64,000 nucleotides of DNA from Aphrocallistes beatrix (Eukaryota > Porifera > Hexactinellida > Sceptrulophora > Aphrocallistidae): the NCBI GenBank assembly GCA_963281255.1, contig OY725489.1, positions 3,782,001-3,846,000 on the forward strand. Direction: 5' to 3'. Below, one piece after another: positions 17,790 to 63,627 of this stretch. The notes under the pieces were generated by a model, which was not told the origin of the DNA, did no database searches, and saw nothing but the letters and a program-made list of their open reading frames with translations. Each line of letters starts with the position of its first letter. Within the stretch, counting starts at the first letter, position 1. The position numbers and the translations under genes were made by a program.

Positions 17790-20268
17790 TTATTTCTGTG
17801 GACACACTTCGCAAATCCATTGATTGCGGTCTTTTACTCTCGACTCATCCACGCAATAAAAATGCCACCATTTAGAGCACCTAACACATCTGAGCCAATC
17901 AACGCTCTCTTTACGACCAATCTGACGCTTATTGAGAACTGGGGGATATTCAAGGTCACACAAAAAGCACGTTTTGCCATCTTCACTAACGTCACTAGGA
18001 CTAGAAACATCCTCAACAGAGCTATGATACCCTGGAGACTCATCCGACGAGCTAAAAAGACTCCTCTTGGACCGAAGAGAAGAAACCGAAACGATATTCC
18101 TCCCTTCGCGTGCTGTTATCGATGTCTTTCCCCGAGTTACAACCTTCCTGGTTCCACGAAGAGATGTTCTAAGACCTCTCGAAGAGCTAGGACCAGAAGA
18201 TACTCCAACACTACCCTCTGAACCAAATGACGAACTTAGATAACTTGGCCCACCCTCTTTTTTCTGTAGATCTCTTTCACGATGTAACTTCATATTACGA
18301 AGTCGCCTCCTTCGTCGTTGGACATTGGTCCCGACCTGACGACTAGCATTCCTTCTACGTTCATTTTCGCGGTTCATTGCTTCAAAGTATATATTCCCAG
18401 AGGGATTCAATCCTAGCTCTGCCATGAGCTTATAAATAAAAGCTTCGCCTTCATTGAAAATCAGGATAGCAAACTTGACGCTGACACGAATTGACTGCGG
18501 AGACACGTACCGACTCTTGGGAATCAAACTCCAGATAGTATTATGGAGTGATTCATTGGCATTCTGATTCAAACCATGAGTGAGATGGCTGCAAAACTCG
18601 ATAGAAGCAAATAGTTGGAATGTCTCTTCAACTTTCGCGATGTCCAAGGCGGAAAAATTTGTAACAGCTGGGGGTGCGATTGAACCAGTAGTTTCGGCTA
18701 GTTTCCATCGGCACCAGGATGCTGACCCATCTGGACATTTATTATGATCTCCTGAGACGTGAGAAACTAAAATCCATAAGGCCTGTGAAATAGATTCTGC
18801 TGATTTACCCCGATTCTGGAAGACTACAGTCGAATAATTAGATGAAATATAATTTGCCTTGTCTTCTGTTAGGCGATGTTGTATGTATGTATGGTTTTTC
18901 GTGTTACTTTTTATCTTTTTTAAATGTTTTCCAAGTCGTTTTGTTACATGAGTGGTACACTCCTGCTTACTTACTCTGACAAATTGATAAGGATTCATAC
19001 TAGAGACAGCTTGGTATGCTTTAGAATCACCATCCCCGACAAAGATCGAATAGGCAAGACCGAGATCTAAAGACCGAGCCCAAATGCGTCGAGCTGCCTC
19101 TGGTTCCATTGCCTGCGAAGATCCCTCAAAATTCTTCATGCAACGAGGTCGGTGTAATTCAATCCACTGACTGTACTTCTCGGGTTCAGATTCTCGCTTT
19201 GCCGCTGACCATGATCCGCACTTCTCACAAAGCCGACTAAGAAGCTCGAAATCCAGAACCTTCTTCGACACTGTGGAAATAACAGATCCGAAGCCAATGT
19301 TGGAATAAAAGCCTCGAGTCTTCCAGGAACTGTCACAGCTAACGATAACATTGATCGCTTTAGACTCAGGAGATGGTTGTGCGTCTACTCGCGATCTCAA
19401 ATTCTGAGCTGCTGAGAGCATAGAGATATGGCATGCCTGGGTTCCAAGGGTATCCAAGCGTTCGATATATCGCGCAGGCATATGTCTAAGAGGTGGAGGC
19501 ATATCAAAGATGGTGGCGAGATCTCTCCAGGACATTCCAGTAGAGTGTACAGCGAGTACGGAACGCATAGTAACATCCGTCATTTCTCTGACTGGAAGGG
19601 AAACATTGACACATGTTTCGTTCCTTGGCTTCTCAAGAGGTTTGGAGGAAGGAAACTCTGAAACAACTAGGGGACAACGGCTACATTTCACAAAAAAACG
19701 CGTATTCCATCCATGTTCCCACGGATGTTCATAAAGTTCTAAGTGACCTCCGCAGTCCGAACATTTGAGACACGCGAAAACATCGGATAGAATGTTCATA
19801 TCAAGTAACCGCATTCCTCTAGGTCTATGTGCACCAACTGAAAAAGTGCGGTTGGAGGTTGGAAAATGGCATAACATTTGCGATTTAGTGGACTTTCTAG
19901 GCACTGATATATCGGATATATATCCTCTCCTAGGGAGTCGGTGTCCTACATTTATTATGTGGTCGTGATTCATCCAGTTTGACAGTCTTTTTGGGCAGGG
20001 TGTGTTGATTCCCACGAAAGGTCTTTCTAAATCGGCGCCCTTTTTTCGATGTTGGAGGAGATTGGTGGGAAGAAGCTGCTGTCTCCTGGGAAGATAACTC
20101 AAAATCAAAGAAATTCCTGGAAAGTCCAACTGTACTGGGTGTAGAGGTGGTGGGGGATTGAACAAGAGAATCTGAAGAGATTGAACCAGAATCGGCCCCA
20201 GAATTGGGGTCGCCAACATCCCAAATAACAAGGGAGGCATTGCTACTCGAAGAGGTGAAAGACATCAC
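17790..20268 (-). CDS. Mutator-like transposase with C-terminal PHD finger
   Basis: A cut-and-paste DDE transposase acting in the nucleus. The long open frame ends at 17790 and runs back to 20240 (816 codons). Using that numbering: a zinc-binding region near 155-190 (CLKCSDCGG, CSRCP); the RNase H-like core with CDSSWKTRG near 301 (first Asp), VGDGDSK near 400 (second Asp), CPDGSASWCRW near 520 and ANESLHNTIW near 563 (candidate Glu); a Ser/Arg-rich linker; a PHD finger near 758-812 (CFLC, CVRCSKWWHFYC, WICEVC). The first ~95 codons of this frame read poorly, while the overlapping frame 19930-20268 gives a Ser/Thr-rich then basic N terminus starting MSFTSSSS. I infer a one-base frameshift at about 19930-19980 with the true start near 20265. 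The rest is intact, unusual here. The same architecture recurs, decayed, at 26.6-31.2 kb. Confidence 0.85.
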
Positions 20269-54151: not shown

Positions 54152-54420
54152 TCAACATGCTATTCAAGAATTCCGCATTTTCTAAATAATGGTTCCCATT
54201 TTAATCTCAGAAGTTCATTAAACAGAGAGTGTCTATATATCCAGTAAGAAAATCACCCTAAATTGCAGTAAAATAGCCTGTTGCGCCATAACCGAAGATA
54301 ATCTCCATCCACTTCTGCATCCCTGGTCCAAAATTCGCTAGTTATTGTCACGCCTTTTATATAGTGGGCTATGAATCAATATGTTATACTTTATCAATAG
54401 TTGAAATCTTACTATTATAG

Positions 54421-54659
54421 GTACGAGGCTATTTCACCGAAAATCCCCCGGAAAAACTATTGTGAAGTTAGAGAGAAAGATGCGTGCCTTGACGAACAGA
54501 GTAGTATTGGGGGAGACGGAAATTCTAAAGCTGAAAGACGAAAATCTCAAATTTTCACAAGAGGTATCACGTATGGCACAAGAATTAGCTGTAGTTCAAC
54601 AAAAAGTAAGGATATTGGAAAATACACTTTCTCACATACACAACATCAGCCACACTTAA
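54421..54659 (+). CDS. Possible coiled-coil exon
   Basis: TTACTATTATAG gives a 3' splice site. The following frame ends at a TAA at 54657-54659 and encodes a basic stretch (HRKSPGKTIVKLERKMRAL) then a leucine/valine heptad pattern (EILKLKDENLKF, MAQELAVVQQKVRILENTL), i.e. a coiled coil of ~50 residues. It could be the last coding exon of a host leucine-zipper or structural protein. The frame is free of stops, unlike the transposon relics nearby. The basic-then-zipper look is suggestive of bZIP but lacks the Asn/Arg signature. Confidence 0.4.
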
Positions 54660-55089
54660 ACAATGAAAGTGAGTTGCCGTAAATACACTTTGTTTTTCAA
54701 GTGACACATTGTTTGTTCTGCAGATAAATGTCAGTATTGATACTCGATTGCCTGAGCAGTTCCTGTTTTTCATATCTATGATTATTTGGTATATAAAAAG
54801 CTAATCCCTATCTATCTCTTATAGGGATACTGGAGTTATACATGTATTTTTTTCCGTTTTCTATCATCCCCCACCCCCCGAATTTATTAATGCACAATAC
54901 AACTAGCCTTATTGTCAAACGTAGTTAAATCGGTGTCTAAATCTAATTCATCATTATATTGTAATGAAGATATCTGATACACATTTCATACACCATGCAC
55001 TTAACTTAGTTACCATTTATCTAATATGGAACTTGATGTGAATTATTCTTAAATACTCTTATCAGTTAGTCCTTTAAAGTAATTATATT

Positions 55090-57077
55090 CGTATCATTAA
55101 TTAATTTCGAATGTGGCAGGATATATGCGTAGTAAATATTTTATCCTGTGTTTGGTTATCCTGGACCCGATATCAACTAGAGACGATTTTGCGAAAGAAC
55201 AGCAGAAGTAATAGTTCGTATCTATGAAAAGTCTTCCATCCCAACAATATCTGAGATCAAAATTAAACAATACATCAATTCTTGTGTTATTGAGAGAGCT
55301 AAATCCAATGGAAAAAATATCCAAAACAAGCAACAACCTGACCATATCAAGGATATTGTTTCCGAATTCAATATTGTGTTCGATATCTCAAGTAGCAAAT
55401 GCCCGATTGAAGAAGGTAAATGATTTTGCTCTTTTGATATAAAGATACCATGGTGCGTGTAGCCATTTCTCCTTGATCAGCGAAACGTTCGGAAATTATT
55501 TATATCTAGCTCGGATCGCTCGACCACTTCCAAAGATATTGCTACTCAAAAAAGAAAAGAGGCACAATATGAAAGAGAACTGAAGCGAAAACTGCTTGAT
55601 CATCCTTCGCTGGAATTTATAGAATGTGACTTTGAAGAGTTTCAATATTTTGAGCCAAGCACATCGAATAATCACAAGCATATACGTAATCATGATCAAT
55701 TACGAAATTTTGCCATAATGTGTGACAGATATCAAATAAGCGATCGAGCAGGCGCAGCTATAGTTAACACAGTACTGCAGGATTACGGTATAATCACACC
55801 AGATGAAAAGAGCCTAATGATTGACAAAAACAAACTCCATAGATCTAGATTCTCTGTGAGAAGGGATCTAACTGACGAAGCTCACCAGAATATTAGTGAT
55901 AGCTCTCCAATTCCTTTTGATGGCCGCAAAGATCCAACTCGAGTGCTGGAGAGAGAAGATGGAACTCTGCACCAGGATACTACAAATGAAGAATATTACA
56001 CCATCTTATCTAAACCAGGAAATCAGTATATTCCCCATGTAACACCAAGTTCTGGTAAAGCAAAATACATAACAAGGGAATTAGTTGATCTTTGCTGGTA
56101 GCGTGATTCAGATTTAAAGGCGGTTGGAGCTGATGAAGCTCGAGTTAACACTGGAATCCATAATGGATGTATTAGACTCCTTGAACTTGAGTTCTCAAAA
56201 CCACTCCACTGGTTTATTTGCCAATTAAACGGTAATGAGCTTGCATTGAGGCATCTATTGGGAAGAATAGATGGAAAAACCAGTGGGCCCAATTCTTTTA
56301 AAGGAGTAATTGGAAAAATACTTCATTCTGATTTTACTATCAAGCCAATCGCGGTTTATGATCCTATATGCGGCAAAACCCAGTACATGAATTACGATGT
56401 TCTCAACAATTTCAGTTCAGATCAGAAATATCTATATAATATATGTCATGCAGTTCAGTTCATCTGAACTTGCATCGATGAAACCTGGTCCTATACATCA
56501 TGCTATATGGATAACACTAGCTAATTGGCTGCTTTCTATCCTACATTTCAACGATCCATCCTACACCTGATTTGTCCCGAATTGTCTATTTTATAGTCAA
56601 TATTTATGCACCAGGTTGGTTTAGAATTAAGAGTAAACCGATATGCACAGATGGACCCAGAAACATGTTCCCTGCAATATTTTTACTGCGAGAGTTACCC
56701 GAGGATGATCAAATAGTAAATTGTGATATTCTACAGAGAAATGCATATTTTTGTCATCCAGAAAATATCGATGCTTGCAGACAGTGATGTGCAAATTAGA
56801 CAAAAGGCCGTGAAAACTATTTTAGATATCCGCACCAACAACTGATCATTTGGACACATCACCATTTACCAAACACTTCTCAAAAGAAGTACTACTCAAT
56901 ATTGTGTGTGCTCCTATGGAAATTTCAAGATATCCATGCCATACACAAGCTGTTGAAAGAACTATTCAACTGGTTACTAAAGCTTTGTCTTCAGTAACAG
57001 GGGAAGAGGCGAGACATGGGTTCATTCTTTCAACACTAACCTCGAGAGAAAAAATGCCTGCTTTTGATTCAAAATAA
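55090..57077 (+). pseudogene. Decayed gene of an uncharacterised multicopy transposon-like family
   Basis: Pieces in order: KSSIPTISEIKIKQYI and KDIVSEFNIVFDIS (about 55225-55415); FLLDQRNVRKLFI then TSKDIATQKRKEAQYEREL (55465-55600); IMCDRYQISDRAGAAIV, SRFSVRRDL, IPFDGRKDPTRVLE, YIPHVTPSSGKAKYI (55718-56101); after one in-frame TAG, AVGADEARVNTGIHNGCIRL, LHWFICQLNGNELALRHLLG, RIDGKTSGPNSFKGVIGK (to 56467); IYAPGWFRIKSK and QRNAYFCHPENI (56572-56787); and YPCHTQAVERTIQLVTKA, EEARHGFILSTL (56850-57077). I recognise this motif series as a hypothetical-protein family present in many near-copies in arthropod genomes. I know of no assigned reaction. Conserved acidic residues in GADEARVNTG, RIDGKTSGP and HPENI or AVER could form a DDE site. 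At least three stops or frameshifts. Ends unknown. Confidence 0.6.
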
Positions 57078-57258
57078 GATTATGCATGCTAAATTAACTG
57101 GATATGATATTAGTGAATCTTGCTCCATTCAACATTTGATCAAAACGCTTGTGTTGTACGTTTTATTAATATTTGGGAAATAAAGGCAACTTTCCCTTAT
57201 GTAGAAGCTGATCCGACCATTTGTACATTTCTTGACCCGGCTTAAATTGATTATATTA

Positions 57259-57991
57259 CAGTAAAACCTCTCAGATCCGGGCAGTCCCGTCCGAACGGTG
57301 TCCGGATCTTAGAATTGTCCGGATCTCAGAATTTTGTCCAGTATAACATGCGAAACCGGTAAGTGTACAGTAATGGAAACTTATATGGAAGCGAGTTCTA
57401 TTTCCCTATAAAGCGGCGATTTGTACACTCTTTTGGGAGGATAAGAGTGCTTTTCTCTCTTTGACATTAGGAGAAATCAGCAGATAATTGAAAGTTTATG
57501 GATTCAATTTCTCCATATAAGTAATTCAGTGCAATAGATATTTATGCAAGCTGTATATACTTCCCAGTTTAACATGGACTGGGTTTAATTTCATTATCCA
57601 GGTATCAAGCTTGTTGTGTACACAAGAAGCATATTAGTTGAATTCTATTCTGAGAACCGGACAGCTCTAAATTTCAACGCTCTGAGATCCGGACATTATC
57701 CATTTATTTTCTACCCATAATTCTATACTCGCGATTTCTATTATATCATCTACATGATGTGTGTATTAAACTCAAATTTAAATTTATTCTGAGATCCAGA
57801 CAGCTCTAAATTTCAATGCTCTGAGATCCGGACATTATCCATTTTTAATCTTACATGAACATTAGTGTACTGAATTTTACTTTTTTATGAATTTTTGTGT
57901 CGAACATTTTCATTGGTTGTAGAAAAAAAATAAATTTCGAGGAAAAATATGCCCGGTCTAGGGAGGTGTCCGGATCTCGGAGGTTCGACTG
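57259..57991. mobile_element. pogo-type MITE, 733 bp
   Basis: The ends CAGTAAAACCTCTCAGATCC and GGATCTCGGAGGTTCGACTG are inverted with TA flanks (57257-57258, 57992-57993). GCTCTGAGATCCGGACATTA recurs twice inside. No transposase frame remains. Confidence 0.85.
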
Positions 57992-58344
57992 TATATATTT
58001 GTAATACTGTGTGCAAAGATTGATTTTAGTCTACTTTCTATATACTATCTTATATTAGCGAAATCCCGAAGTCTTTGGTGAAGGTTTGAGTATGTATGCA
58101 ACTCGGTATACGATTTTTGATTTATGATAAATTGTAAGAGACTATAAACAGTAGAAACTTGATATTGGAACCAAGGGTCTCAAAGGATGCCCTCTAAACC
58201 AATTTAACTCCAAACCAAAACGGACAATGAATTTTTCAGACTGCGGTCATTGACATACTTACTAACTGCTTCTATAAGAGCATGTTTGTGCGCAGGGATG
58301 GTTTACTGTTCTTTAAAATGTCTTTAAAAATATCTCCAATCGTA

Positions 58345-62281: not shown

Positions 62282-63627
62282 CAGGGTGTCTCAAAAGTTT
62301 TTTCCGGTTTTATAATTTATCAAAATATTCCTTTTACATCAGTGCTTGCATTTAAACTCGCCCTTCTTTGATAATATTTAACTTGAACGGTCATAATGTT
62401 TGAATGAAATACAAATCAATTGTATTTGTTAACATCTTGTGATTTTCTTGACCTCACTTCATCATCAATATATAGTTTATATTATGGATGTCCAAAATTC
62501 CAGAATTGGTAAGAGATTACGTGCAATCGGTATGTTAGAATCTGGTATTAGCCAGAAACAGATTGCTCAGACCTTAGGGGTTACAGTTAAGACTGTTTGG
62601 AATTGGAAAACGAAGATTCTATCAGGCAAATCTATGGCGGTCAAACCTCGGTCTGGGCGTCCAACACGGCTTTCTCGCGTTCCTAAAATCATTATTAGAA
62701 AATCTCTAGGCAAACGTTGGCAGTCTACGTGAAAACTTGCTTGTATCGTTTCGAAAAATTCACAGAGAGTTAGTAAAGACACGATACATCGTTATTTAAG
62801 GAATACCATCGGAGCAAAGCCATACAAAAGACCTTCGCAACCAAAATTGTCGGAAAGACAGAAGGAACAGCGGCTACAATTCTGCCTTAGTCATAAATTT
62901 TGGGATGAACAGGATTGGAAAAGGGTTCTTTTTAGTGACGAGAGTTTTTTTGAACTTTTCCATCCAACAAATCGGCAGAACGATCGGGTTTGGAGTCAGA
63001 ATGCGCGAAACATTAAGCCTATTCAGACAGTTAAATTCCCGCCTAAAATCATGGTCTGGGGGATGATGAGTGGCACTGGGATCTCGGAACTCCATTTTCT
63101 TCCTCCCAAACAATCTGTAAATCCAGAATACTATATAAAAGAAATTTTGGAGAAGTCCTGCCTTCCTACCTTGAAGAGAAGGAAAACTACAGGCCCAGTG
63201 ACAGAACGGAAAATGTGTCGCTTGATGTCCCAGGCCATTTTTATGCAGGATGGTGCTCCTGCTCACACCGCCAAAAAGACGCAAACCTGGCTTTCCAATC
63301 ATATTCCAGGGTACTGGGCTAAAGGAATTTGGCCTAGCAATTCACCAGATTTAAATCCCATTGAAAATCTTTGAGCGATTATTCAAGCAGAGCTTGACAA
63401 GAAGAGACCAGCCACCAACTTGTCAGAGCTCGCTAATTACCTGAAAAATATCTGGAATGGACTCACACCGTCGATTTTGGGGAATTTAATCTCAGGGATG
63501 CCTGCTCGAATTAATTCTTGTATCCAACTTAAAGGAGATTATATTGGCAAATAATTTAAGATTTCTATACTATAGTTTACAAGTTATGGGTATTAGTACA
63601 ACCGGAAAAAACTTTTGAGACACCCTG
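62282..63627 (+). mobile_element. Tc1-like DD37E transposon, complete, 1346 bp
   Basis: The terminal inverted repeats CAGGGTGTCTCAAAAGTTTT and AAAACTTTTGAGACACCCTG run about 28 bp and match perfectly over 20 bp or more. They are flanked by TA (62280-62281, 63628-63629). The single gene fills most of the interior. The near-perfect repeats and light damage point to recent movement. Confidence 0.93.
62484..63554 (+). pseudogene. Tc1-like DD37E transposase, two nonsense codons
   Basis: A cut-and-paste transposase that inserts at TA. The frame from ATG at 62484 to TAA at 63552-63554 is 356 codons with no frameshift, broken only by TGA at 62730-62732 and TGA at 63372-63374. N terminus: helix-turn-helix (RLRAIGMLESGISQKQIAQT, VTVKTVWNWK), then a GRP-type hinge PRSGRPTRLS. 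Catalytic motifs: LFSDESFF (first Asp), MQDGAPAHTA (second Asp), SPDLNPIENL (Glu). Exactly 37 residues separate the second Asp and the Glu, the DD37E spacing known from a mosquito-type branch of the Tc1/mariner group. The second stop sits where the family normally has Trp after PIENL. Length is normal for the family. Confidence 0.92.

What the first reader, a model, noticed from the sequence alone, without database searches (positions are those of the whole stretch)
55090..57077. Relic of a widespread but mechanistically undescribed transposon-like family
Ordered motifs (VNTGIHNGCIRL, LHWFICQLNGNELALRHLLG, DGKTSGPNSF, QRNAYFCHPEN, YPCHTQAVERTIQLV) match, from memory, a protein family found in many near-identical copies in arthropods with no assigned function. 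Multicopy behaviour plus conserved acidic residues suggests an RNase H-fold DDE transposase of an unnamed superfamily. The copy here is dead, but it adds a genome to the distribution and shows the domain order.
Basis: partly seen in the sequence, partly recalled or inferred. Interest (0 to 1): 0.75.

Follow-up and report, generated by a model that had tools for sequence, protein, structure and literature searches.

The report
Dead copy of hAT-like jumping gene
This stretch is the broken remains of a cut-and-paste jumping gene from a many-copied animal family that the Pfam domain library does not recognise, and its relatives' ends, insertion footprints and predicted enzyme shape point to a distant branch of, or neighbour to, the known hAT transposons.

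The parts
54787..57244 (+). whole transposon relic, truncated on the left
   Evidence: blastn homology to copies on C6, C19 and C11 (L020, L027, L026) begins at 54787; with L013 and L025 it begins at 54859 and 54881; right terminus at 57244 by TIR match
54787..54970 (+). inner part of the left terminal inverted repeat and 5' leader; the outer ~255 bp of the left repeat are missing
   Evidence: 54787 aligns to L020 3067 and L027 3506; L027's left repeat starts at C19:1705950, i.e. L027 3251
55110..57077 (+). decayed transposase coding region (stops and frame changes), TAA at 57075-57077; the start is approximate
   Evidence: tblastn of relatives covers 55163-57089; frames
55919..55921 (+). codon of the presumed first catalytic Asp (FDGRKD; D309 of P0009), retained
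   Evidence: invariant in 82 of 82 and 101 of 101 relatives
56132..56134 (+). codon of the presumed second catalytic Asp (GADEARVNTG; D383 of P0009), retained
   Evidence: invariant in 82 of 82 and 101 of 101
56219..56230 (+). CxxH motif, here CQLN (His lost)
   Evidence: C and H each in 82 of 82, and in 100 of 101 with 1 gap
56496..56531 (+). RW motif region of the helical insertion (HHAIWITLANWL; relatives HSRWLTxANRIL), Trp retained, Arg lost
   Evidence: W invariant in 82 of 82 and 101 of 101
56955..56957 (+). codon of the presumed catalytic Glu (HTQAVER; E714 of P0009), retained
   Evidence: E in 82 of 82, and in 99 of 101 with 2 gaps
57181..57244 (-). outer part of the right terminal inverted repeat (reads TAAGCCGGGTCAAGAAATG... 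inward on the - strand)
   Evidence: 92% match to bases 1-65 of the subfamily TIR, one of 30 matches in the genome; 23-bp core exact, none in 100 shuffles

Best explanation
The finding is a dead, left-truncated copy of a class II (cut-and-paste) DNA transposon. Its full-length form encodes one ~740-825-aa transposase: a mostly helical N-terminal region, then an RNase H-fold catalytic domain split by a large all-alpha insertion. The enzyme is inferred to work like hAT transposases: it binds the terminal inverted repeats, a D-D-E triad helped by CxxH and a Trp in the insertion cuts at the ends (probably through hairpins on the flanking DNA), and the element is inserted with an 8-bp staggered cut preferring nTnnnnAn. 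Shown here: multicopy, TIRs, 8-bp duplications with T2/A7, invariant motif order; by prediction, the fold. Inferred: catalysis, hairpin step, oligomer state, DNA binding by the N-terminal region, spread of a coding-defective subfamily in trans. It is best placed as a deep, uncharacterised lineage inside or next to the hAT superfamily.
Against: No hATC, BED or other hAT Pfam model matched any of 41 relatives scanned. The 82-row profile finds no Hermes chain at E <= 10, whereas an ordinary hAT of the same genome finds it at 6e-14. hhalign against that hAT gave probability 3.4%, though it put Asp on Asp twice. For the second model Foldseek has no match at E <= 0.001, ISCth4 leads (E 0.007), and Hermes is not among the 50 rows shown. 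Hermes W182, needed for efficient hairpins and two residues after its first Asp (D180, recalled), has Arg at that place in the family (DGR). TIRs of ~80 and >= 124 bp exceed the 10-25 bp given for hAT (PMC3942097, passages). In the window's own, older subfamily 0 of 5 paired ends kept an exact 8-bp duplication (in one of the 5 the outer left end is itself gone). In 3 of 10 young pairs the duplication is not exact. Whether family W513 falls on Hermes W319, and the carboxylate distances, could not be inspected.
Confidence: 0.85

Rival explanations
1. It is a transposon of a separate, unnamed DDE superfamily, sister to hAT, that has retained or converged on the 8-bp footprint and the helical insertion. 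(It shares the mechanism of the best explanation and differs in classification only, so the odds overlap.)
For: No hAT or P transposase Pfam model in 41 relatives, no Hermes match from the family profile, no detectable hATC or BED domain, long TIRs. Repbase's rule separates superfamilies that do not converge in PSI-BLAST, E < 0.005 counting as converged (PMC4455052, passages).
Against: Footprint bias, motif order and best structural alignment agree with hAT. A full iterative search against hAT proteins could not be run.
Confidence: 0.3
2. It is already catalogued in Repbase or Dfam under some hAT subgroup or other name, so that only the protein-domain library misses it. (This too can be true together with the best explanation.)
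For: Relatives occur in several sequenced insects. hAT subgroup names such as hATm, hATw and hATx are in use (search listing). UniRef labels two members 'DUF4371 domain-containing', and DUF4371 is said to include hAT transposases (PMC3985635, passages).
Against: Those two members (P0046, P0137) match no DUF4371 model here at E <= 10. Strings of family motifs occur in 0 held papers. Neither Repbase nor Dfam is on hand.
Confidence: 0.5
3. It is a P-element-like transposon (also 8-bp duplications, recalled; RNase H fold with insertion).
Confidence: 0.04
4. It is a decayed host gene (domesticated transposase or multigene family), not a mobile element.
For: Some frames in the genome are long, up to 408 aa, and a few relatives sit on chromosome-size contigs.
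Against: TIRs and distinct 8-bp duplications around near-identical copies in unrelated flanks.
Confidence: 0.02

Closest known systems
Hermes transposase / hAT superfamily (PDB 4d1q, 6dwz, 2bw3)
   Same: RNase H fold with all-alpha insertion before the Glu helix, CxxH and Trp motifs, 8-bp duplications biased at positions 2 and 7, length class 2.5-5 kb
   Different: 8-11% identity in the structural alignments, no detectable BED finger or hATC domain, Arg where Hermes has W182, TIRs of ~80 to >= 124 bp
Ordinary hAT elements of the same genome (150 PF05699 matches, a lower bound; P0121)
   Same: same order D, D, CxxH, RW, ER in P0121
   Different: P0121 carries PF05699 and finds Hermes by sequence (E 6e-14); profile comparison with the family is not significant
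Drosophila P element transposase (6p5a)
   Same: RNase H fold with insertion; 8-bp duplications (recalled)
KDZ (Zisupton/Kyakuja/Dileera)
   Same: Zisupton also makes 8-bp duplications (PMC12730594, passages)
   Different: no KDZ-type match appeared in the Pfam scan (that Pfam holds such a model is recalled); no structural comparison was possible
ISCth4 (PDB 6xgx)
   Different: bacterial copy-out/paste-in element (PMC7780238, abstract in a search listing); weaker and shorter alignment than Hermes

Membership tests
DDE cut-and-paste DNA transposon (class II, TIR order) | RNase H-fold transposase with D, D, E at canonical positions | tested here: met
   models of P0009 and P0001, best matches transposases; residues invariant. 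Carboxylate distances not measured; prediction, not a solved structure.
DDE cut-and-paste DNA transposon (class II, TIR order) | terminal inverted repeats and target-site duplications of fixed length | tested here: met
   young subfamily: 10 TIR pairs, 7 with exact 8-bp duplication, 1 with 7 of 8, 2 without. Not recoverable for the window copy (left end lost); 0 of 5 pairs in its subfamily.
hAT superfamily | 8-bp duplication with preference nTnnnnAn (consensus recalled) | tested here: met
   13 of 14 positions T2/A7 in 7 exact duplications; site-2/7 bias in hATx-6 from PMC8721813, passages
hAT superfamily | terminal YARNG-type ends (recalled) | tested here: inconclusive
   TAGGG/TAGAG in most ends of the young subfamily fit; TAGGC, TATGC or TAAGC in the window's subfamily depart at the fifth base
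hAT superfamily | short TIRs, 10-25 bp | tested here: not met
   ~80 bp and >= 124 bp; range from PMC3942097, passages
hAT superfamily | hATC dimerisation domain (PF05699) | tested here: not met
   0 of 41 relatives scanned at E <= 0.1, and 0 of 9 at E <= 10 (partly the same proteins); an undetectable version is not excluded
hAT superfamily | N-terminal BED zinc finger | tested here: not met
   0 of 41 relatives; not every hAT need have a detectable one (recalled)
hAT superfamily | Hermes-like catalytic domain with all-alpha insertion, CxxH and insertion Trp | tested here: met
hAT superfamily | sequence convergence with known hAT transposases | tested here: inconclusive
   no Hermes match at E <= 10; hhalign probability 3.4% against a 3-sequence hAT alignment; no large hAT profile or iterative search was available
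P element superfamily | THAP domain and P-type RNase H domain with GTP-binding insertion | tested here: not met
   no such Pfam match in 41 of 41 relatives; insertion all-helical in both models
KDZ superfamily | KDZ transposase domain | tested here: inconclusive
   no such Pfam match in 41 relatives; no structural comparison possible

The most novel reading that the evidence does not exclude
The family is a separate DDE transposon superfamily of animals, sister to hAT, which has kept a Hermes-like architecture and the 8-bp nTnnnnAn footprint without recognisable hATC or BED domains, and which current protein and transposon classifications do not name.
Probability: 0.25. Interest if true: 0.65.

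Novelty: new variant of a known kind. Interest (0 to 1): 0.5.

Why it matters
Such proteins from insects, a leech and a placozoan are stored as 'uncharacterized' or 'hypothetical' where they have a name at all. Recognising them as hAT-like transposases lets genome annotators mask them, and gives a test case for how far hAT-type machinery can change (no BED or hATC signal, long TIRs, no W182) while keeping the same footprint. The window copy alone is an ordinary relic.

Tried and rejected
Pfam scan of six window frames gave nothing above cut-off; the weak rows (for example GP4 0.19, STATa_Ig 0.02) I take as noise. Pfam scan of nine relatives at E <= 10 gave nothing relevant; the UniRef name DUF4371 was not reproduced, and a PHD-finger match in P0165 lies in a tail that looks foreign. 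Profile search of the PDB: one chance hit, E 2.9. hhalign against an ordinary hAT: not significant. Viral contigs: 25 pattern matches, none confirmed. Viral fold library: one match under 0.001, a protein named as hAT-type of a Pandoravirus, E 2.7e-8. Automatic TIR-plus-duplication search on ten loci: only L017 and L018 gave pairs (scores 20 and 21; best of 20 shuffles 18 for each); the other eight gave none, among them L019, whose two flanks differ. Paired ends of the window's subfamily: no exact duplication in 5 pairs. Paper searches for motif strings: 0 papers; eight topical searches showed no description of this family in their listings; only open-licence papers are held, and their lists were short. 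Folds absent from the structural lists are not taken as excluded (P element is not among the rows shown for the second model). The N-terminal ~230-300 residues were modelled only within the whole protein and are barely tested by the fold searches.

Full report
Observation. Whole relatives used as tblastn queries match the window in order from 55163 to 57089 (P0063 E 6e-73 and 1e-14; P0102 2e-72; P0001 6e-61; P0009 2e-59; P0138 4e-53; five of five queries). The reading frame is broken by stops (56099-56101, 56465-56467) and frame changes, and the His of the CxxH motif is lost (CQLN). The two Asp and the Glu presumed catalytic are still encoded.

Extent of the relic. Compared with five other copies of its subfamily in the same genome (L013, L020, L025, L026, L027; 75-96% identity over pieces), homology starts at 54787 in three of them (54859 and 54881 in the others) and reaches 57248 at most. 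The subfamily has a long terminal inverted repeat: 120 bp at 96.7% in L020 and 243 bp at 86% in L027; L013, L025 and L026 showed no long one. The outer 124 bp are found 30 times in the genome, including the window's right end at 57181-57244. The window copy has lost the outer part of its left repeat and inner parts of the right one. Five paired ends of this subfamily had no exact 8-bp duplication; in one, on C6, the outer left end is itself gone. Age would explain this, but it is a negative result.

Mobility shown on a younger subfamily. One 121-aa piece of the relic finds 54 places in the 100.5-Mb genome (65 candidates scored; a lower bound). Among them is a young element: L014, L015, L016, L017 and L018 match L019 at 96.7-98.7% over 2.2-3.2 kb, with unrelated flanks. 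Its 80-bp end occurs 23 times; I pair 20 of these 23 into 10 facing pairs and 3 are single. The pair on C1 is 21 kb apart and that on C16 6.6 kb, probably by nested insertions; the pair on C2 is a 1.46-kb form. Seven of 10 pairs carry exact 8-bp duplications (ATACACAT, CTTCACAG, CTGTATAT, ATATACAG, GTACTCAA, ATGAACAG, ACCTACAT), one (C2) has 7 of 8, and two (C10, with a damaged right end, and C12) do not match. The chance of one exact match is about 3e-5. T at position 2 and A at position 7 hold in 13 of 14 positions, P 4e-6; the consensus nTnnnnAn is recalled, and a hAT element of Hydra shows strong bias at the same two positions (PMC8721813, passages). Six of six young copies compared share the same frame break and internal deletion, absent from two related copies, L009 and L011. 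The simplest reading, an inference, is that they were moved in trans by a transposase made elsewhere.

The protein family. A search of 5.8 billion proteins returned 285 relatives at E <= 0.001 (best 120 listed) and, from a 41-row profile, 63 (candidates capped). Named sources in the lists include Anastrepha, Diatraea, Brassicogethes, Callosobruchus, Daktulosphaira, Diabrotica, Helobdella (leech) and Trichoplax. Two clusters of this 90%-identity database stand for 812 and 939 sequences (P0143, P0147). No listed row has a precomputed Pfam family except P0165, whose extra match I take to be a foreign tail. In 82 aligned relatives, D309, D383, C412, H415, W513, E714 and R715 (numbering of P0009) are invariant; in a wider set of 101, which includes shorter entries, D, D and W are 101 of 101, C and H 100 with one gap, E 99 with two gaps. 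Other acidic positions are invariant too (for example D313, E400, D429), so conservation alone does not single out the triad.

Is it a hAT? For: footprint, structural alignment, motif order, and ends in the young subfamily. Against: none of 41 relatives matches a hAT or P Pfam model, the family profile does not find Hermes while an ordinary hAT of the same genome does, hhalign between the two is not significant (probability 3.4%, though its one alignment puts both Asp in register), W182 is absent, and the TIRs are long. One comparative study says that in its hAT/P clade only P elements lack the hATC domain (PMC3985635, passages). I therefore say that it works like a hAT (likely), and leave membership open between a deep hAT clade and a sister superfamily.

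Novelty. Strings of family motifs occur in none of 5.39 million held papers, and eight topical searches listed no description of it. Repbase and Dfam, where it may well have a name, were not available. The window copy itself is an ordinary relic; the family is a lineage unknown to Pfam and worth naming.

Noticed in passing
window 57256-57995: Short element with ends TACAGTAAAACCTCTCAGATCCGG and, inverted, TACAGTCGAACCTCCGAGATCCGG next to TA, with internal copies of TGTCCGGATCTCAGA in both orientations; looks like a non-autonomous Tc1/mariner- or pogo-type element directly behind the relic (the type is recalled resemblance).
   Followed up: partly
window 54405-54659: Open frame preceded by an acceptor-like AG, with a weak, below-cut-off match to the HMMR C-terminal coiled coil (E 9e-4); could be the last exon of a host gene just upstream of the relic.
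   Followed up: no
window 17793-20264 (-): 824-aa open frame, the longest in the window; not identified.
   Followed up: no
window 62733-63371: 213-aa frame that reads like a Tc1-type transposase (recalled resemblance).
   Followed up: no
own genome, e.g. C8:609281, C11:3098078, C13:4098085; L063: 150 ordinary hAT (PF05699) matches, a lower bound, some in long open frames; three places have a 717-aa frame and the same score, so the host genome also carries apparently young classical hAT elements.
   Followed up: partly
L009 against L010, L012, L018, L028 and others: Abundant repeats of about 200-470 bp recur in many of the fetched 10-kb loci, several times within one locus and in both orientations (the printed list was cut to 150 rows, all from L009).
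   Followed up: no
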